Source of the DNA: Methanobacteriota archaeon
GTDB taxonomy: Archaea; Halobacteriota; Methanosarcinia; Methanosarcinales; Methanosarcinaceae
Length of the DNA stretch: 32,821 nt
Direction: 5' to 3'
Assembly: GCA_016841625.1 (NCBI GenBank)
Contig: JAENYU010000012.1
Coordinates: 35,620-68,440, forward strand
Part shown: in pieces, positions 20,177 through 28,913 of the stretch
How positions within the stretch are numbered: position 1 is the stretch's first letter
How the letters are laid out: every line of letters starts with the position of its first letter
The notes under the pieces: generated by a model
The model's input: only the letters and a program-made list of their open reading frames with translations
What the model was told of the DNA's origin: nothing
Databases searched by the model: none
Position numbers and translations under genes: made by a program

Positions 20177-21220
20177 ATGCATGTTGTTGAAGTTGAAGGA
20201 GTATCAAAGTCCTTTGGGGGAAAAGATGTCATCAGGGACATTTCCTTTTCCGTTGAAAAGGGAGAGATCTTCGGGCTGCTCGGGCCAAACGGGGCAGGGA
20301 AGACCACGCTCATCAGGATGCTCCTGGACATCATCAGGCCTGATTCGGGGGAGATCCGGGTTTTCGGGGCGTCCCTGGACCCTTCCGGAAAGGACAGGAT
20401 CGGCTACCTCCCGGAGGAGCGGGGGCTGTACCGGAAAACAAAACTTGTCGATATGCTGGTCTACCTGGCGCAGCTCAAGAACGTTTCCGGGAAGCAGGCC
20501 CGGGAAAACGCTGATACCCTGCTGCGGTCCCTCGGGCTCTACGAGTACAGGGGGAAAAAGGTTGAAGAGCTTTCCAAAGGGATGCAGCAAAAAATCCAGT
20601 TTCTTTCTTCAATTATCCACCACCCGGACCTGGTCGTCCTGGACGAACCCTTTTCGGGGCTTGACCCGATGAGCACAAAGACCATCAAGGACAGGATTCT
20701 CGATTACAGGAATGCCGGCAAGACTGTCATCCTCTCAACGCACATGATGGAACAGGCCCAGACGCTCTGCGACCGGATCCTGGTGGTCGACAGGGGCAGA
20801 AGCGTGCTTTACGGCAGCGTGGAAAGGATCCGGAAAGAGCGCGGGAAAAATTCCCTGCTTGTGGAATTTGCAGGGTATGGTTCCGTCCATGGCGAAGTGT
20901 ATGCTTCAGGTTATGGTTCCGGACATGATTCCGTCCATGGAGAAAGGTTTGGCTCAGAGTCTGGCGCAGGGAATGTCGCAGGAGGTAACGCGGGTGGCGA
21001 CGCTCTGAGCGTACTTCGTGGAATCCCCGGGGTCAGGAGAATTGTGGAGCACGAAGAAGATAATAAAAAGTTCGTGGAGATCTTTCCGGAGGAGGGTGCA
21101 GGTATGCAGGTGATTCTGGAGGAGCTTGTCCGGAGAGTCGAAGTCCTGCGTTTCGAGCAGGCACTCCCGTCCCTGAACGAGATTTTTATTGAAACGGTAG
21201 AGGCCAATGCCAATGAGTAA
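20177..21220 (+). CDS. ABC transporter ATP-binding protein (NatA-like)
   Basis: Started at 20177 (MHVVEVEGVSKSFGG), this is a 347-residue ATPase subunit; upstream ATGs lie in repeat sequence or lack a homologous lead. Walker A GPNGAGKTT (36-44), signature LSKGMQQ (132-138), Walker B LVVLDEP (152-158) and H-loop His189 are all intact. A Gly/Ser/His-rich insert with internal repeats (SVHGE, GYGS) spans about 232-275, between the ATPase core and the C-terminal domain. It overlaps the permease start by 14 bases, so the two form one translated unit. The family includes NatA-type Na+ or drug exporters; substrate is not determinable. Confidence 0.9.
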   Translation: MHVVEVEGVSKSFGGKDVIRDISFSVEKGEIFGLLGPNGAGKTTLIRMLLDIIRPDSGEIRVFGASLDPSGKDRIGYLPEERGLYRKTKLVDMLVYLAQLKNVSGKQARENADTLLRSLGLYEYRGKKVEELSKGMQQKIQFLSSIIHHPDLVVLDEPFSGLDPMSTKTIKDRILDYRNAGKTVILSTHMMEQAQTLCDRILVVDRGRSVLYGSVERIRKERGKNSLLVEFAGYGSVHGEVYASGYGSGHDSVHGERFGSESGAGNVAGGNAGGDALSVLRGIPGVRRIVEHEEDNKKFVEIFPEEGAGMQVILEELVRRVEVLRFEQALPSLNEIFIETVEANANE

Positions 21221-22460
21221 ATTTTCAGGAAAGGCTTTTACGGTTGCCAGGCACGAGTTCCTGAAAACCGTGAAGCGCAAGGAATTCCTTTTCATGACCT
21301 TCATTTTCCCTGTCTTCCTGGCCGGGATTACCCTTGTCCCTGCCCTGCTTGCCGGCATGACCCCTTCCGAAGACCAGAGCATAGGTTACGTCGACAGGAC
21401 CGGTTCCCTTGACTTTCCCGGGGAAGTCACAAACGGTGGATTTGCGGTGGGACCTTTCGGGGAAGAAACCACAACAATAGAGTTTGTCCGGTACGCGGAA
21501 ACTCCTGATGCCAGCCGGGCGCTCAGGGCCGGGGAGATCTCTTCCTACATCGTAATCCCCGTGGACTTCCTGGAGACCGGGGTAATCGAACTTTACGCCT
21601 CCGAAAAAGGAGTCACCGTCCCCAGTGTCGATCTTGCGGCAGACCTTTCCGATATCGTTGTCACCTCCCTCCTGCAGGACGAGGTGGACGAAGCCGTGCT
21701 CCAGAGGGTCAAGGACCCTGTTAACATTAAGCTGTTCGACATCGAGGAGAGCGGGGAAGCCAACGAGCAGGGTGTTGCGGATATCCTGGGGGACCTGGGT
21801 CTCCCTTTCCTCACTGCCTTCCTCCTCTTTTTCAGCATTTTTTCGTCATCAGGCTACCTCCTCCGCAGCGTCTCCGAAGAGAAGGAGAACAGGATTATCG
21901 AAGTCCTGCTCTCCTCCGCAACCCCCACCGAACTCCTGACCGGCAAGATCATGGGCCTGGGTGCAGTCGGCCTCCTGCAAATTACTGTCTGGATTTCCGC
22001 AGTCGCCCTGGGCGCCTCGTACGCCCTCCCTCTGAGCCTGAACCCTTTCCTGCTTTTCCTGGCTGTCGTCTATTTCCTTTTTGGCTATCTCTTTTTCGCA
22101 AGTCTCATGGCCGCAGTCGGAGCCATGTCCTCCTCTCTTCAGGAAAGCCAGCAGGTAGCCGGAATCTTCACTTTCGCAGCCGCAGTCCCCCTCATCTTCA
22201 TGCAGCTCCTGCTTACAAAACCTGACAGCCCCCTTGCCATCTTCCTCTCCCTCTTTCCCATTACCTCCCCTGTCGCAATGCTGGTTCGGATAGGGGCTAC
22301 GGAAGTGCCTTTTTACCAGATAGCAGTGAGCCTTTTCATCCTGATGCTCTCAATCCACGGCGTAATCATATTCTCCAGCCGCCTCTTCAGGGCTTACCTC
22401 CTTATGTACGGAAAAAGGCCGGCTGTCAGGGAGATCCTGAGGAATATGCGGGAAGGATAA
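21207..22460 (+). CDS. ABC-2 type permease (NatB-like)
   Basis: This 417-residue membrane protein starts at ATG 21207, inside the end of the ATPase gene; ATG 21213 is an alternative start. An N-terminal helix (about 25-50) is followed by a 145-residue extracytoplasmic domain and then about six helices from 195 onward, the usual ABC-2/NatB/YhaP layout. The cytoplasmic segment SEEKENRIIEVLLSS matches the conserved motif of the family. It forms the transport channel for the preceding ATPase. Exported sodium, antibiotics or lipids are all possible. Confidence 0.9.
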   Translation: MPMSKFSGKAFTVARHEFLKTVKRKEFLFMTFIFPVFLAGITLVPALLAGMTPSEDQSIGYVDRTGSLDFPGEVTNGGFAVGPFGEETTTIEFVRYAETPDASRALRAGEISSYIVIPVDFLETGVIELYASEKGVTVPSVDLAADLSDIVVTSLLQDEVDEAVLQRVKDPVNIKLFDIEESGEANEQGVADILGDLGLPFLTAFLLFFSIFSSSGYLLRSVSEEKENRIIEVLLSSATPTELLTGKIMGLGAVGLLQITVWISAVALGASYALPLSLNPFLLFLAVVYFLFGYLFFASLMAAVGAMSSSLQESQQVAGIFTFAAAVPLIFMQLLLTKPDSPLAIFLSLFPITSPVAMLVRIGATEVPFYQIAVSLFILMLSIHGVIIFSSRLFRAYLLMYGKRPAVREILRNMREG

Positions 22461-23037
22461 GTAAGTTTCCGGTTCATGTAATCTCGAATATTTTAGCCCT
22501 TATTATGGGACCCCCTGATCCCCAAAATAATGGGACTAATTGAAGAAACAGATATTCTATCGCCAGTGATTTATATTACCCCTCACATAATATTGATTGA
22601 TTCATAGGGGTAGAGAAACAAAGGATGGGGAAGCCGTACAACTTGATAGGTACGGGACTTCATTCAATTGTGGAAGATCCTTATGAATCACCCCTATATC
22701 GAGCTTTTTTTCACTTCAAGTTTCTAATTTCAAGCATTGTTTTTCCTTTCTGAAATAAGGTTTTTTTTTGTATGGCTTCTGTCCTTTTTTCATTTCAGGG
22801 AATTGGTGGAAGGTTTCAGCCGTCTCCGGGACATGTCCGGACCTTGCAAAAAGGAAGGGTCTGTATAAATAATAACGAAAGCTTCGAGAGCCGTGGCTGC
22901 TCTGACTCCGAGGACGGGGAAGGTCAGGAGGATGGGGAAGTTTCATGAGTTTGCTTTGGACGGGGCATCTTCGTTAAAAAATTGAGCAACTAAATGAAAA
23001 TACTTATAATGTATTACGGTATATTACAATTATTATA
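22461..23037. other. Intergenic region with structured and repeated sequence
   Basis: It holds the candidate three-way-junction element (22604-22697) and one member of a diverged repeat pair (about 22795-22945). No supportable gene is seen. An AT-rich promoter-like stretch (about 23000-23040) leads to the small Cys-rich ORF. Confidence 0.45.
22604..22697 (+). ncRNA. Candidate three-way-junction structured element
   Basis: ATAGGGGT (22604-22611) pairs with ACCCCTAT (22690-22697). Inside are a hairpin GAAG-CCGTAC / GTACGG-ga-CTTC (22630-22661) with a ten-base loop, and a second hairpin ATTCA...TGAAT (22662-22688) with an inner GGA/TCC. The junction strand 22612-22629 is purine-rich. The GAAGCC...GACTTC hairpin is reminiscent of the RNA at the right end of IS200/IS605 tnpB genes, so a decayed transposon end is the main alternative. 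The strand is uncertain because the pairing is symmetric. Confidence 0.4.
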
Positions 23038-23095
23038 TAATGTAATTTCAAAAAACCCCCATGAGCTAATGTAATTTCAAAAAACCCCACGGAGC
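23038..23095 (+). repeat. 29-base direct repeat leading into the small Cys-rich ORF
   Basis: Two copies (23038-23066 and 23067-23095) begin TAATGTAATTTC and end GAGC, differing at a few bases. A third partial TAATGTAAT follows at 23096, and the ORF start codon falls at its end. The second copy supplies the GGAGC that could serve as ribosome-binding site. Confidence 0.85.
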
Positions 23096-23102
23096 TAATG
23101 TA

Positions 23103-23285
23103 ATGGAATATTTATGTTATGAAGAATGCAATCAATGTCCTTCATACGAAGAAAATCTATACCCCACCCATTGTAGAAAAATGAACGAGGACATTAAAGT
23201 CGGAGGGGCTATGATTGGTGCAGAAAGAGTAGAAAAATACTGGGATGCAATAATTTGCGAACAAAAATCCGAGCATAAACTCTGA
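23103..23285 (+). CDS. Small Cys-rich protein, unknown function
   Basis: The 60-residue ORF has cysteines at 5, 9, 12, 24 and 52, with the N-terminal cluster C-x3-C-x2-C-x11-C suggesting a metal or iron-sulfur site. The start is supported by GGAGC eight bases upstream. No signal peptide is present. Small Cys-rich proteins are common in methanogens, but this one is not recognised, and non-coding chance cannot be excluded at this length. It stands alone between non-coding stretches. Confidence 0.5.
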   Translation: MEYLCYEECNQCPSYEENLYPTHCRKMNEDIKVGGAMIGAERVEKYWDAIICEQKSEHKL

Positions 23286-24161: not shown

Positions 24162-27100
24162 ATGAAATTTGTAAAAATAGTTATGCAGGTCTTCATTATA
24201 TTTTTTTTGATAAGCCCTGCTTTTGCAGAATCTATGGGTAGTAGTTCATTAGATGATAATAAGGCAACAAATACAGAACTGTTGACTGCCTCGCTTAATC
24301 CCGAGTTTATTGAATATCAAAAACAATTGAAACAGTATGAAAATACTGACCTTTTTTTGGTCCAATCTTTGGAATATAGAGGTGAACCGATAAAAAACAT
24401 TTATTTCAAAAACGGGCTTATACCCTCACCTGTTGATAATTCCCACATAGATAAAATTCCTGCAAGAATAAATAATAATATTAACTATCTTTCATCAAAT
24501 TCGCAAGCTTTGCCATCATATTACAACCTTCGTGATGAAGGAAATGTAACTCCTGTAAAAGATCAAGGTCGTGCAGGTAGTTGCTGGGCTTTTGCTTCAT
24601 ACGCTTCTCTTGAATCTTGCACAATTTCAGATGGGATATACGATTTTTCGGAAAATCACATGAAAAACCTTCTGAGTAACAATTATCCCAATGGGTTCGA
24701 TCGTGCTTCCGACGAGGGAGGGAATAGTTTAATGGCCCTGGCTTATCTGGCGCGCTGGACCGGGCCTGTTTATGAGTCCGATGATCCTTATAATGATCGC
24801 TCCAATCTTTCTGACGCCGGTATCCCTGAAAGAAAACATCTCCAGGAGGCAATATTTCTTCCTGATCGAGACGAGGGTGACCCACATGATAATGAATTTT
24901 TGAAAAGGGCTGTGATGGATTACGGGGCTATATTCGTAGCTATAGAGGTGAACTGGACCTGTTTTAACGACGATCGTTCTACATATTATTACGACTCCCC
25001 TACCTCTCATATCGTAGACGGAGGTCATGCAATTGCTCTTGTTGGCTGGGACGATAATTTTGACAGAAACAACTTTGCGGTTACACCCCCTGGGGACGGG
25101 GCATTTATTGTTAAAAATAGTTGGGGTACTGATTCTGGGGACAACGGTTACTTCTACATCTCCTACTACGATCCGTATATTGGGAGATATTGTACGAATA
25201 CTGTTTTTATAAACGCCGAAGATGTGGACAACTATGATAACATCTATCAGTACGATCCGCTTGGATATGTAAGTGAATATGGATGTAGTGGAGGTACCAC
25301 ATGGGCTGCAAACGTTTTTACGGCAGATTCAAATGAATATCTGAAAGCTGTCAGTTTCTATACAACGGATGAAGGGACGCAATATGAACTGTACGTATAT
25401 AGAGGATTGGACCAGGCACCGCTTGATTCCAGCGGGCCTGTATACTCTGCTTCAGGTACTTTTGAGTATGCGGGATACCATCCCGTAGACATCGGCAGCT
25501 CTCTACCTCTTGAATCCGGCCAGGATTACTCCATTGTGATTAAATTCACGGACCCTGATTATTCTTATCTTGTGGCAGTCGAAGAGCCTTATGACTTTTA
25601 TAGTAGCAGGGCAACGGCAAATTCTGGTGAAAGTTACTTGAGTTGGGATGGAGGGTCCTGGATAGATCTTACCAATGTAGGTGAAAATACTAATATTTGC
25701 ATTAAAGCCTTTACAAACACCCCTTCCCCGGAAGCTTTCATCGATACGCTAACCCCCACATCTCCTTTTGAAGGCGATTTAATTACTTTCACCGGCCACG
25801 GGAGTGACCCCGATGGCTCGATTACTGCCTCTGAATGGACTTCAAACCTTGAGGGACAATTAAGCACAGATGCCGTTTTTAGTACTCCGGCTCTTTCTCC
25901 GGGAACCCATTCCATCCTTTTTAAGGTAAAAGATGATGCAAATGTCTGGTCAGAGGCTAATTCAACTACGATTACTATTAAAAACAAGCTTCCATCTGCC
26001 AGAATCCTTTCCATATCTCCCGATCCCTGTTCTGAGGGGAGTTTGCTGAGTTTCAGTGGCTCGGGAACTGATCTCCAGGGTTCTGTAACTGCTTATGAGT
26101 GGAATTCGAGTATTGATGGCTTACTCAACACAAATGCCAGTTTCAAAAGTTCTCAGCTTTCTTTTGGAAAGCATACAATCTATTTCAGAGTTAAAGATGA
26201 TGAGGGGGCCTGGTCAGATCCTGTTTCATCAACTGTAACCATTATTGACGACACAAGTCCGGAAGTTAATATAAATGCGGTCTCCATAAAACTTATAGGT
26301 ATTAATCAGCCGGCGACTCTCATTTTAAACAGTACTGACGCCCGTCCCTGCTCTACAGAGTTCTTAATTACGAATGCTGCAGGTACTGAAATAAGGAACG
26401 AAACTCTTACGGACCAGGTTGCAAACGGAGCAAATTACGAATACATCTGGAATGCAACCGATTCTTCCGGGCAAGCAGTGCCGAGCGGGGAGTATCTTCT
26501 TACCTTAAGCAGTACCGATACATCCGGAAACAGCGCTGATGTAAATATTTCCGTGACCGTGGATAACGATAAGCCGGATGTACATATTGGTGCCGTACCT
26601 GCGGAACATATCAGTACCAACAATCCGGCAACTATCATTTTAAACAGCAGAGATGCAAATCCCGGTTTAACACAATTGGTAATCAAGGGTGCTGCAAATA
26701 CTGAAATTCTTAATGAAACAGTTACAACTCAGGTTGCAAACGGAGCAAATTATGAATTTTCCTGGGATGCATCCGATGTTTCGGATGAACCCGTTCCAAG
26801 TGGGAAGTATCGGTTGTTTGTAACCAGCATCGATGCCTTGAAAAACAGAGCTTCAATTAATGTTTCGATAGATGTTGATAACGATAAACCAGTTGTCAAT
26901 ATTGAAAGCATGGAAGGCACCGGTTCAACGGGCCTGGACGTTTATACAAATTCAACGTTAAGAGTCAATGCTTCTGCATCAGGAACTCCCGGAAACGCTG
27001 AGGAAGTCCTATTCACTTTAAGTTCTGAGTTTACGTGTTTTAAGCGTGTATTGAACGCGGAATTTATCGCTGAAAACTGGACTGCAACGTTTGACCTTTC

Positions 27101-28913
27101 GTCCTTTCCTGATGATGGGAAATATGTTGTGAATGCAAGTGTGAAAGATGCTGCGGGGAACATTAACTCAACAATGGTACCTGCTGTTGTGACCCTGGAC
27201 CGAAATGCCCCCGCTTTATCTGCCCTGGTCACAAAGTTCAATGACACTCATGGACGAATAAACATAAGTTCCAGTGAACCGCTTGGCCAAAATCCTCTTG
27301 TAAAATTAAATGGAACGCCAGTAGCATTGGAGCCAGTGGCGTTGGAGGCAGACCACAGAAATTGGTACGGTTTGATCCTGCTGGACTGTGAGATGTACAC
27401 TATTGATATGAGTGGTGCGGACCTTGCAGGAAACAGGGGGGAGGACAGTTCGAAAGCTTTCCTAAAAACAATCAGGACTTCGGAAGGAACTGCTTCATTG
27501 TTTAACGAAGATACGGGAACTTCTATTATTTTCAATACAACAAAAGATATTGAAGATTTTGTAATTCTCACTGAAAGCAGTGTCCCTATGGTAAATGTAA
27601 GCAAAAGTTCCATAAGTTTTTACTGCATCGATATTGAACCCGGCACTTTCCTGAATGAGAATCTATCTTATGCGACAATCGCCATCCCGGTGAATGAAAC
27701 AAATTTGCCTTCAGGTATTACGGTTGAAGATGTCTCAATCCGCTACTATAACTCCTCGGAAGGTACATGGGAGATTCTTGATACTGAGGTCAGGGAAATA
27801 AACGGAATCAATTGCTGGGTTGCCCAGGTTGATCACTTCTCAACTTTTGGGGCGATTGCAGATGATTCCGTAGCTCCCGTGCTTGAAAGTGTAACCCCGG
27901 CAAATGGGGCGGGTTTTGCTCAGGGAACCACATCTGTTAATGTAGGGTTTGATTATACTGATGGACAGACAGGCACCAATGCAAGCTCGATAAAGTTTAG
28001 TTTTGATGGGGACGAAGTGAAGAATAGCGAAAATCTGGAACTTACGGGTAGCTACGTATGTTATACTGCAACGGGCCTGAGTGCCGGGACCCACAAAGCT
28101 TCAGTTACTGTCTTCGATAACGCAGGAAATTCTGCCACATTTTCCACTTCATTTTCAATAGCTTCTTCCAGCAGTGGTTCTAGCGGCTCCAGTGGTTCCG
28201 GTGGTTCTGGCAGCTCTTCCGGCGGCGGGGGAGGCGGTGGGTCTCCTGAACCTCAGAGTAACGTCGAGGTAAAGGAACTTTCTCAGCAGTTCATTGCAAA
28301 CGGAATGCATGTTGAGTTCCAGTTCCCACAGGGAGTAACCTGCCTGGAACACGTGGGCTTCGATGCAAAAAGGACCCTGGGAAAGACAACAACCATTGTT
28401 GAGATGTTGAAGGGTAAGTCCGAACTGGTCTCTGAACTTCCTGCCGGTGCCGTCTACAAGAACCTGAACATCTGGGTTGGAAATGGGGGAGTTGCGACCC
28501 CTGAAAACATAGAAAACGGAGTTATAGGTTTTAAGGTGGAAAAGGGGTGGCTCGAAGAAATAGGCTCTGACTCGAAATCCATTAGCATGTGGCGCTATAA
28601 TGAAGGGAACTGGTCAGAACTTGATACTGGCCCGGCAAATGAAGATGAAACATACGTCTACTTTGAAGCAAAAACTCCCGGTTTCTCGCCTTTCTCAATA
28701 ATAGCAGATGGTGAGGCGGTTTCCGTGTCTGGCTCTGGAGTTTTGAATATCTCCCCTCTAAAAGATGTCTCTGACTCTTCTTTAGATACTTCATCTGATG
28801 TTGAAATGCCAGGGGCTGATGAAAAACCAAAAAGCACTCCGGGTTTTGGTTCCATGCTTGTGCTTGAAGTTGTTACCGCTTTATATTATGTGTTTAAAAA
28901 AGGGTGTAAGTAA
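24162..28913 (+). CDS. Giant secreted papain-like surface protein with PKD/Ig and PGF-pre-PGF domains
   Basis: This 1583-residue protein opens with a signal peptide (about 1-22). A C1A papain-like peptidase follows: Gln135, Cys141 (QGRAGSCWAF), His289 (GGHAIALVGW) and Asn319 (KNSWG). Next are a lectin-like beta domain (about 335-520), two PKD domains (about 527-700), two FlgD/Ig-like repeats sharing VANGANYE (about 705-910) and further beta modules. A Ser/Gly linker (about 1330-1365) precedes a PGF-pre-PGF domain (about 1370-1530) and a C-terminal TPGFGS plus hydrophobic segment ending KKGCK, a degenerate PGF-CTERM. It is likely exported, lipid-anchored by archaeosortase and displayed on the S-layer, where it would cleave proteins or act in adhesion. 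Confidence 0.9.
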   Translation: MKFVKIVMQVFIIFFLISPAFAESMGSSSLDDNKATNTELLTASLNPEFIEYQKQLKQYENTDLFLVQSLEYRGEPIKNIYFKNGLIPSPVDNSHIDKIPARINNNINYLSSNSQALPSYYNLRDEGNVTPVKDQGRAGSCWAFASYASLESCTISDGIYDFSENHMKNLLSNNYPNGFDRASDEGGNSLMALAYLARWTGPVYESDDPYNDRSNLSDAGIPERKHLQEAIFLPDRDEGDPHDNEFLKRAVMDYGAIFVAIEVNWTCFNDDRSTYYYDSPTSHIVDGGHAIALVGWDDNFDRNNFAVTPPGDGAFIVKNSWGTDSGDNGYFYISYYDPYIGRYCTNTVFINAEDVDNYDNIYQYDPLGYVSEYGCSGGTTWAANVFTADSNEYLKAVSFYTTDEGTQYELYVYRGLDQAPLDSSGPVYSASGTFEYAGYHPVDIGSSLPLESGQDYSIVIKFTDPDYSYLVAVEEPYDFYSSRATANSGESYLSWDGGSWIDLTNVGENTNICIKAFTNTPSPEAFIDTLTPTSPFEGDLITFTGHGSDPDGSITASEWTSNLEGQLSTDAVFSTPALSPGTHSILFKVKDDANVWSEANSTTITIKNKLPSARILSISPDPCSEGSLLSFSGSGTDLQGSVTAYEWNSSIDGLLNTNASFKSSQLSFGKHTIYFRVKDDEGAWSDPVSSTVTIIDDTSPEVNINAVSIKLIGINQPATLILNSTDARPCSTEFLITNAAGTEIRNETLTDQVANGANYEYIWNATDSSGQAVPSGEYLLTLSSTDTSGNSADVNISVTVDNDKPDVHIGAVPAEHISTNNPATIILNSRDANPGLTQLVIKGAANTEILNETVTTQVANGANYEFSWDASDVSDEPVPSGKYRLFVTSIDALKNRASINVSIDVDNDKPVVNIESMEGTGSTGLDVYTNSTLRVNASASGTPGNAEEVLFTLSSEFTCFKRVLNAEFIAENWTATFDLSSFPDDGKYVVNASVKDAAGNINSTMVPAVVTLDRNAPALSALVTKFNDTHGRINISSSEPLGQNPLVKLNGTPVALEPVALEADHRNWYGLILLDCEMYTIDMSGADLAGNRGEDSSKAFLKTIRTSEGTASLFNEDTGTSIIFNTTKDIEDFVILTESSVPMVNVSKSSISFYCIDIEPGTFLNENLSYATIAIPVNETNLPSGITVEDVSIRYYNSSEGTWEILDTEVREINGINCWVAQVDHFSTFGAIADDSVAPVLESVTPANGAGFAQGTTSVNVGFDYTDGQTGTNASSIKFSFDGDEVKNSENLELTGSYVCYTATGLSAGTHKASVTVFDNAGNSATFSTSFSIASSSSGSSGSSGSGGSGSSSGGGGGGGSPEPQSNVEVKELSQQFIANGMHVEFQFPQGVTCLEHVGFDAKRTLGKTTTIVEMLKGKSELVSELPAGAVYKNLNIWVGNGGVATPENIENGVIGFKVEKGWLEEIGSDSKSISMWRYNEGNWSELDTGPANEDETYVYFEAKTPGFSPFSIIADGEAVSVSGSGVLNISPLKDVSDSSLDTSSDVEMPGADEKPKSTPGFGSMLVLEVVTALYYVFKKGCK

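What the first reader, a model, noticed from the sequence alone, without database searches (positions are those of the whole stretch)
22604..22697. Compact three-way-junction candidate
An 8-bp closing stem and two inner hairpins, one with a two-base GA bulge, fold neatly in 94 bases of otherwise non-coding DNA. It may be a structured RNA. The GAAGCC...GACTTC hairpin also resembles transposon-end (omega-type) RNA left by a lost IS200/IS605 element.
Basis: partly seen in the sequence, partly recalled or inferred. Interest (0 to 1): 0.5.

Follow-up and report, generated by a model that had tools for sequence, protein, structure and literature searches.

The report
Conserved hairpin RNA gene of Methanosarcinaceae
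The flagged stretch is part of a small RNA gene kept by natural selection in methane-producing archaea, the one-hairpin member of an apparently uncatalogued RNA family that elsewhere carries up to about twelve hairpins in a row; it does not look like a leftover of a transposon.

Summary
The structure is real, but its limits and fold were misjudged. The inferred RNA runs from about 22598 to 22711. A 12-14 bp stem (22598-22609 with 22679-22690) joins its ends; the reported 8-bp stem is a non-conserved competitor (pairing probability about 0.01 in the full RNA). Inside lies one stacked hairpin: a rod, not a three-way junction. A TATA-like box lies about 25 bases upstream; a T-run follows.

All 4 genus genomes carry one strong match (87-88% identity outside the own). 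The RNA is 87-92% identical to the other three; fourfold sites of the adjacent permease, measured for two, are 71-78%. Homologues lie downstream of the same ABC permease in 16 of the 19 closest loci, with compensatory changes in the end stem. A model built without this genus still finds the window element (E = 1.9e-4).

The family also holds tandem arrays of a 67-68-nt hairpin unit behind a similar promoter and end stem: 1 to 11-12 units, 53 of 237 genomes of the class, 4 of 39 genera, no Rfam match. The own genome has a 6-unit array elsewhere. The transposon reading fails. Function is inferred: a free-standing regulatory RNA with an exposed C-rich tail (this type) or repeated binding sites (arrays). 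A short leaderless peptide in this genus is not excluded.

The parts
22532..22562 (+). Upstream box (GGGACTAATTGAAGAAACAGATATTCTATCG), kept to varying degree in the homologues; possible regulatory site
   Evidence: Read; counterparts; promoter region 22530-22596 is 73-81% identical to three genus genomes
22570..22578 (+). TATA-like box (TTTATATTA)
   Evidence: Sequence; a TTTATA-like box, with variants such as TTATATA or TTTTGTA, lies at a similar distance by eye in the elements listed. Role inferred; no start site was measured
22598..22711 (+). RNA gene (inferred transcript): one-unit type A element
   Evidence: One strong match in each of 4 genus genomes; independent model R3 hits 22598-22696, E 1.9e-4; fold z -4.4 for 22597-22703; 87-92% identity against 71-78% at fourfold sites
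22598..22609 (+). P1, 5' arm of the outer stem
   Evidence: (I1)
22679..22690 (+). P1, 3' arm of the outer stem
   Evidence: (I1)
22623..22630 (+). P2, 5' arm (GGATGGGG); counterpart of ATGGAG in other members
22658..22665 (+). P2, 3' arm (CTTCATTC); counterpart of CTTCAT in other members
22634..22655 (+). P3 hairpin (CCGTAC, 10-nt loop, GTACGG); shorter and unlike the canonical P3 of the family
   Evidence: not matched by unit model R2
22691..22703 (+). C-rich 3' tail (CCCCTATATCGAG), unpaired in the computed fold
   Evidence: 22691-22711 is 100, 100 and 90% identical in three genus genomes, 52% in KYL-1; CACCU or CACCCCU at the P1/tail border in type A members
22705..22711 (+). T-run, probable transcription terminator
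   Evidence: Sequence; T-runs at the same place in the three genus homologues and KYL-1. Inferred
21207..22460 (+). Neighbour, not part of the RNA: ABC-2 type permease that marks the conserved place
   Evidence: Pfam PF12698, E 2.2e-45; element downstream of it in 16 of the 19 closest loci

Best explanation
An independent small RNA gene, read from its own TATA promoter. Its two ends are zipped by stem P1 around one inner hairpin (P2 plus P3), leaving a C-rich 3' tail single-stranded. It is the one-unit member of a Methanosarcinaceae RNA family whose other members repeat the inner hairpin up to 11-12 times inside the same kind of end stem. Shown: homology, synteny, purifying selection, the P1 stem on this strand, and the link to the array elements. 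Inferred: transcription, and function as a trans-acting regulatory RNA. For the window's form I think most likely that the conserved tail (CCCCUAUAU, after the last P1 bases CA), perhaps with the P3 loop, pairs with ribosome-binding sites of target mRNAs; the canonical units of the arrays look like repeated binding platforms for a protein. My estimates: conserved structured RNA gene 0.92; member of the array family 0.9; tail or loop pairing as the mode of action 0.35.
For: One strong match in each of the 4 genus genomes, 87-88% identity in the three others. RNA 87-92% identical in three genus genomes, permease fourfold sites 71-78% (two of them), downstream DNA 40-48%. P1 98.7% paired on 13 sequences with compensatory changes at 3 pairs. 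Over 23 distinct P1 arm pairs at least 10 of 12 positions pair in each (for array and Methanosarcina elements the script chose the register that pairs best, and four arms slipped by one base). U-G pairs in P1 (7 of 13 rows at one pair) would be A-C mismatches on the other strand, which favours this strand. R3, built without this genus or KYL-1, finds the element, its three genus homologues and KYL-1, starting at the P1 5' end (E 7.7e-6 to 4.8e-4). Downstream of the same permease in 16 of the 19 closest loci and 0 of the next 10 (10 of the 16 helped to build R1). Promoter and P1 shared with the arrays. On 51 units RNAalifold returns exactly P2 and P3; 97.4% of cells pair, one P3 pair is AU 28, GC 14, GU 5.
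Against: No transcript was seen. P3 and the conserved internal loop are lost in this genus: unit model R2 does not find the window element even at E <= 10, so its function may have shifted. P2 varies on one side only in 51 units and has no two-sided change in A5, so its support is weaker than that of P1 and P3. In this genus one frame from 22597 shows more silent than coding changes (12 against 9 summed over pairs). No target or protein partner was tested. The tail idea rests on tail conservation within the genus, which fails in KYL-1 (52%), and on analogy with M. mazei sRNAs that mask ribosome-binding sites (passages of PMC5867862, and PMC11456600).
Confidence: 0.58

Rival explanations
1. Protein-titrating RNA: each hairpin unit binds an RNA-binding protein, the arrays act as sponges in the manner of bacterial CsrB/RsmZ, and the one-unit element is a low-capacity or regulatory member.
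For: The unpaired internal loop of the unit is about as conserved as its helices (columns 16-20, 22, 47, 48 and 52 at 94-98% of 100 near-complete units). The number of units varies from 1 to 11-12 between elements, which fits repeated binding sites.
Against: No protein partner is known; the window's own unit has lost the conserved loop, so this reading suits the arrays better than the window element.
Confidence: 0.3
2. Small messenger RNA, array form: each unit encodes a peptide of about 19 residues (MEQI(Q/K)D..LK.DP...F..) and the arrays are polycistronic mini-mRNAs.
For: The frame is open in 80 of 85 full units; pN/pS is 0.53 in that frame. 21% of 314 newly found translated small ORFs of M. 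mazei lie in reported sRNAs (passages of PMC11456600).
Against: Shuffling columns while keeping pairs leaves 78.1 of 85 open on average (range 76-81), so openness is not more than column composition gives; pN/pS is 0.65 in another frame. Third codon positions are not the most variable. By eye the frame stops early in one-unit Methanosarcina members (sequences).
Confidence: 0.07
3. Small messenger RNA, window form: a leaderless frame starting at the TTG of 22597 (LIHRGRETKDGEAVQLDRYGTSFNCGRSL) is translated in this genus, alone or beside an RNA function.
For: Over 26 codons in the four genus members this frame has 9 coding and 12 silent differences summed over pairs (pN 0.026, pS 0.113), against 24:0 and 18:0 in the other frames. 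It is open for 38 codons in the three other genus members and in KYL-1. M. mazei sRNA154 is reported to carry a leaderless 20-residue ORF (passage of PMC11456600). A 60-base DNA match lies in a SAMP2-type gene of G015 in the same frame by eye (KDGEAV).
Against: Few independent changes: 3, 4 and 7 of 14 variable columns fall on codon positions 1, 2 and 3. The start codon is TTG in three and CTG in one of the four; the frame stops after 29 codons in the window; by eye it stops after 7 codons in one-unit Methanosarcina members (sequences). None of the four genus peptides matches a Pfam family at E <= 10.
Confidence: 0.07
4. Remnant of an IS200/IS605 element: omega RNA left after loss of tnpB.
For: A superficial resemblance of the GAAGCC..GACTTC hairpin.
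Against: 13 TnpB-type matches in the genome, none on this contig; no similarity above chance to five of them; single strong match; constrained and syntenic.
Confidence: 0.01
5. 3'-UTR structure or terminator of the permease operon rather than a separate gene.
For: P1 starts 137 bases after the permease gene on the same strand.
Against: It has its own TATA-like box and upstream box. In KYL-1 (L037) a diphthamide synthase gene (PF01902, E 3e-52, L037 6308-7015) lies between permease and element, and in L035 the element starts about 1.9 kb past the permease. Array members lie elsewhere.
Confidence: 0.04

Closest known systems
M. mazei regulatory sRNAs (sRNA154, sRNA162, sRNA41)
   Same: Intergenic sRNAs of a related archaeon; stem-loops that pair with or mask ribosome-binding sites are reported (passages of PMC3510493, PMC5867862, PMC11456600).
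   Different: sRNA162 lies between MM2441 and MM2442, is 191 nt with SL1-SL3 and a 39-nt linker. sRNA154 lies between MM3337 and MM3338 with a potential NrpR operator. The passages read describe neither as one end-closed rod or as an array. The place of sRNA41 is not in those passages, so identity with it, or with another of the 199 M. mazei intergenic sRNAs, is open.
CsrB / RsmZ family of bacterial sponge RNAs (recalled)
   Same: Variable number of similar hairpins in one RNA.
   Different: No Rfam match of any kind in the element or in 18 array loci beyond tRNAs; no archaeal partner protein that I can recall.
Cold-induced conserved sRNAs of Methanolobus psychrophilus (PMC5378194, passages read)
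   Same: A set of nine conserved sRNAs behind a shared upstream box in a related methanogen.
TnpB omega RNA of IS200/IS605
   Same: A compact hairpin.
   Different: No tnpB on the contig, no sequence match to five tnpB loci.

Membership tests
Any Rfam 15 family | Covariance-model score at or above the gathering threshold | tested here: not met
   Window: only a tRNA. 18 array loci: only tRNAs. Permissive search of L127, L123 and L047 (E <= 1): one hit, PYLIS_5, at 7819-7882 of L047, over 1 kb from the element.
Methanosarcinaceae end-stem RNA family (defined here) | P1 end stem of about 12 bp | tested here: met
Methanosarcinaceae end-stem RNA family (defined here) | P2 stem ATGGRG/CTTCAT | tested here: met
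   Window ATGGGG/CTTCAT, six pairs counting G-U
Methanosarcinaceae end-stem RNA family (defined here) | Canonical P3 GGAC(A/G)G/C(U/C)GAUCC and conserved internal loop | tested here: not met
   R2 finds no hit on the window element; CCGTAC/GTACGG hairpin instead
Methanosarcinaceae end-stem RNA family (defined here) | Shared promoter layout and, for type A, place downstream of the ABC permease | tested here: met
   (by eye)
IS200/IS605 omega RNA | tnpB upstream or similarity to a tnpB locus | tested here: not met
   (5 of 13 loci compared)
Trans-acting sRNA | Transcribed as a separate RNA | not testable with these tools
   No expression data; promoter and T-run inferred from sequence
Trans-acting sRNA | Base-pairing target mRNA | not tested
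   No target search was run
CsrB-type sponge RNA | Repeated sites that bind a known regulator protein | not testable with these tools
   Repeats shown; protein unknown
Small-protein mRNA (spRNA) | Coding signal beyond base composition | tested here: inconclusive
   Arrays: openness not above column resampling, pN/pS 0.53 against 0.65 in another frame. Window form: a weak signal in one frame of this genus, no Pfam match

The most novel reading that the evidence does not exclude
An undescribed archaeal RNA family that grows and shrinks by whole hairpin units (1 to 11-12) inside a conserved end stem, acting as a protein sponge or multivalent scaffold; it would be an archaeal counterpart of CsrB-type RNAs, with the window's element as a pared-down single-unit form that has kept the end stem and exposed tail.
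Probability: 0.3. Interest if true: 0.8.

Novelty: new variant of a known kind. Interest (0 to 1): 0.55.

Why it matters
Methanosarcina is genetically tractable, and few archaeal sRNAs have a known mode of action. A family found in 26 genomes of genus g8 (taken to be Methanosarcina; at least two g8 genomes, G010 and G098, gave no match), 18 of g5, 5 of g14 and 4 of g1, with a covarying fold and a length that changes by whole units, gives a direct handle on how archaeal RNAs recruit proteins or targets. It also turns an isolated 94-base oddity into a gene that can be deleted, counted and pulled down.

Tried and rejected
Three-way junction: rejected after re-bounding the RNA. Omega RNA or insertion-sequence end: rejected. 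ATG frame at 22625 (42 codons): 24 coding and 0 silent differences in the genus, so not coding. Relic of a SAMP2/ThiS-like gene: a 60-base match in G015 (E 5.2e-5 for one genome, 100 searched) lies in a SAMP2-type ORF (PF21965, E 4.8e-14), but the element's peptides match no Pfam family (0 of 4); left as an unexplained likeness. Peptide-coding units: not supported, not fully excluded. Constant neighbour of the arrays: one protein was scanned at each of ten array loci; three are PRC-barrel, seven have other families or none. Identification with a named M. mazei sRNA failed: the key papers are not held. Literature: searches listed no paper that, from title and start of abstract, describes this family; only open-licence papers are covered, and supplements could not be read.

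Results against or limits. In one search two measures do not exceed their shuffles (pairs changed on both sides 127 of 500, pair types 500 of 500); the same two (90 and 89 of 500). In A5 P1 and P2 have no two-sided change and the two in P3 are one sequence each. RNAalifold on A3 finds P1 but not P2, since the inner parts of the two groups align poorly. Searches used stricter filters, so absences there may hide weak members. A4 (51 units) is a choice from 191 HMM hits (145 distinct rows): 55 picked at below 86% identity, 51 aligned. A5 left out L043 and L111, which a script pattern missed, and its row L122 is misaligned in P1. The count of 12 units in L127 and L129 counts one partly duplicated unit twice. 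One search aligned two loci on the wrong strand and a useless ten bases; neither is used.

Full report
Origin. The window lies in G000, a 3.76-Mb genome of a genus (g1; 4 genomes held) whose named relatives are Methanosarcina and Methanosarcinaceae. The element sits between an ABC-2 permease (21207-22460, PF12698) and, after a gap with only short ORFs, a long protein with protease and Ig-like domains (24162-28913).

Observation. The 94 bases fold better than shuffles (z -3.2), and the 8-bp repeat is exact. But a longer inverted repeat, 22598-22609 with 22679-22690 (I1), overlaps it. When the RNA is folded from 22597, that repeat forms a 12-14 bp stem, probability 0.99 for 11 of 12 pairs, and the reported stem drops to about 0.01. 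The fold is then P1, P2 and P3 stacked in one rod, -36.4 kcal/mol, z -4.4 for 22597-22703. Within the window 147 of 3272 sampled stretches of that length fold as well, but only 2 of 776 with matching G+C, so the fold alone would be suggestive, not proof.

Conservation. A DNA search found one strong match in each of the 4 genus genomes (E <= 1.3e-50). Pairwise, the RNA (22597-22703) is 91, 92 and 87% identical to L036 (G002), L035 (G003) and L004 (G001), and 66% to KYL-1; 22691-22711 is 100, 100, 90 and 52%; DNA from 22745 on is 40, 46, 48 and 40%. The permease's fourfold-degenerate sites are 71, 78 and 48% for L036, L035 and KYL-1, not measured for L004. Within the genus this is purifying selection on the RNA.

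Homologues. The permease protein was used to fetch 58 loci. Of the 19 closest (L035-L053; titled Methanosarcina or Methanosarcinaceae, two only 'Euryarchaeota archaeon'), 16 carry an element downstream of the permease (all but L046, L052, L053), and none of the next 10 (L054-L063) does. Ten of the 16 took part in building R1; the independent ones are L038-L042 and L044 (L044 scores the same as L047). Thirteen one-unit elements (A3; two from L045, which has two in a row) give P1 98.7% paired, with compensatory changes at three pairs (G-C/A-U, U-A/C-G, G-C/A-U), while slid registers pair 26-49%. The reported 8-bp stem gives 68.2% and no compensatory change. In control (a) two of five measures are not above the shuffles (127 and 500 of 500); the case rests on paired cells, double-change cells and the covariation score, all 0 of 500, and on the slide control.

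Independent test. R3 was built from 13 Methanosarcina one-unit elements and one element of genus g14 (L122), without any g1 or KYL-1 sequence. It finds the window element at 22598-22696 with E 1.9e-4, G001 1.2e-5, L035 2.3e-4, L036 4.8e-4 and KYL-1 7.7e-6 over 161 kb; the next window hit has E 0.8.

The array family. R1 matched 39 of 111 family genomes in 4 of 14 genera, often several times per genome. Reading these places showed tandem arrays: the own genome has 6 units on C34 (L123, 674-1077), G033 has 11-12 (L127). By eye nearly all elements begin with a TTTATA-like box, a TTACATA..TAT-like stretch and a P1 5' arm, and end with the P1 3' arm. Over 23 distinct arm pairs at least 10 of 12 positions pair in each, with most registers chosen by the script to pair best. 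The unit is P2 (7 bp), a conserved internal loop, and P3 (6 bp with one bulged A). RNAalifold on 51 units returns exactly these 13 pairs; 97.4% of cells pair against 27-50% for slid registers, and one P3 pair is AU in 28, GC in 14 and GU in 5 units; P2 changes on one side only. A further position pair at the P3 loop covaries most of all but mostly as C-A and A-C (61 and 27 of 143), read here as a non-canonical pair. Unit model R2 finds 53 of 237 genomes of the class and 53 of 111 of the family, all in 4 genera.

Where the window element differs. R2 does not match it or its genus homologues: P3 is a CCGTAC/GTACGG hairpin and the conserved loop is gone. It is a diverged one-unit member, tied to the family by P1, P2, promoter, place and R3.

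Coding tests. In 85 distinct full array units the 18-codon frame from the ATG is open in 80, but column resampling that keeps pairs leaves 78.1 on average (76-81). pN/pS is 0.53 there, 0.65 and 1.12 in the other frames. Mean entropy by codon position is 0.64, 0.36 and 0.52. In the window form, the frame from TTG 22597 has 12 silent and 9 coding differences summed over the six pairs of genus members, against 0 silent in the other two frames; the changes are few (14 variable columns, 7 on third positions), one member starts with CTG, the window stops after 29 codons where the others read 38, and no Pfam family matches. A small leaderless peptide in this genus is therefore open, and would not explain the P1 covariation across genera.

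Not a transposon relic. The genome has 13 matches to the TnpB zinc-ribbon family PF07282, none on contig C59. The element compared with five of these loci gives only chance matches (best E 1.8), while one of the five, L181, matches the other four at 94-99%.

Mechanism. Shown: a conserved, structured element, with U-G pairs that favour this strand, in a family of arrays. Inferred: transcription, from the TATA box about 25 bases before P1 and the T-run after the tail. Inferred more weakly: action by pairing of the exposed CCCCUAUAU tail with ribosome-binding sites for the window's type, and protein binding for canonical units, because the internal loop is about as conserved as the helices. The first idea follows the mode reported for M. 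mazei sRNA154 and sRNA41 (passages of PMC5867862 and PMC11456600).

Known or new. No Rfam 15 family matches. The M. mazei transcriptome has 199 intergenic sRNAs (PMC3432209, passages), whose list I could not read; I think it likely that some member was detected there without being recognised as this family. The claim of novelty concerns the family, its fold and its arrays, not that no transcript was ever seen.

Noticed in passing
L045 6517-6635 and L040 6538-6655: A divergent variant element with a longer end stem (GGTCCATAAAGTCAT with ATGACTTTATGGGCC in L045); in L045 it lies just upstream of a normal type A element.
   Followed up: partly
L009 1370-1582: A SAMP2-type gene of G015 shares a 60-base, 79% identical stretch with the element (E 5.2e-5); the KDGEAV codons lie in the element's 22597 frame. 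Chance or a real trace is unsettled.
   Followed up: partly
L037 8111-8190 (KYL-1): A second, partial and apparently decayed copy of the 3' half of the element, about 1 kb downstream of the intact one.
   Followed up: no
window 23103-23285: A 60-codon ORF for a small Cys-containing protein (MEYLCYEECNQCPSYEEN...); by eye the KYL-1 locus L037 has a counterpart from about 7628.
   Followed up: no
window 23038-23095: Two head-to-tail copies of a 29-nt unit (90% alike) upstream of the small ORF.
   Followed up: no
window 24162-28913: A 1583-residue protein with papain-type protease, Lectin_like and several Ig-like domains (Pfam), probably a surface protein.
   Followed up: no
L124 923-1303, L126 967-1365, L130 1336-1734: A PRC-barrel gene upstream of the array in three array loci.
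   Followed up: partly
unit alignment columns 29 and 36: The strongest covariation in the unit is mostly non-Watson-Crick (C-A, A-C, A-U, U-G), suggesting a wobble-type pair closing the P3 loop.
   Followed up: partly
array promoters in L123, L130, L135, L137 and L141: An ATTACT....AGTAAT inverted repeat upstream of the TATA box in these array promoters, not seen in type A promoters; possible operator.
   Followed up: no
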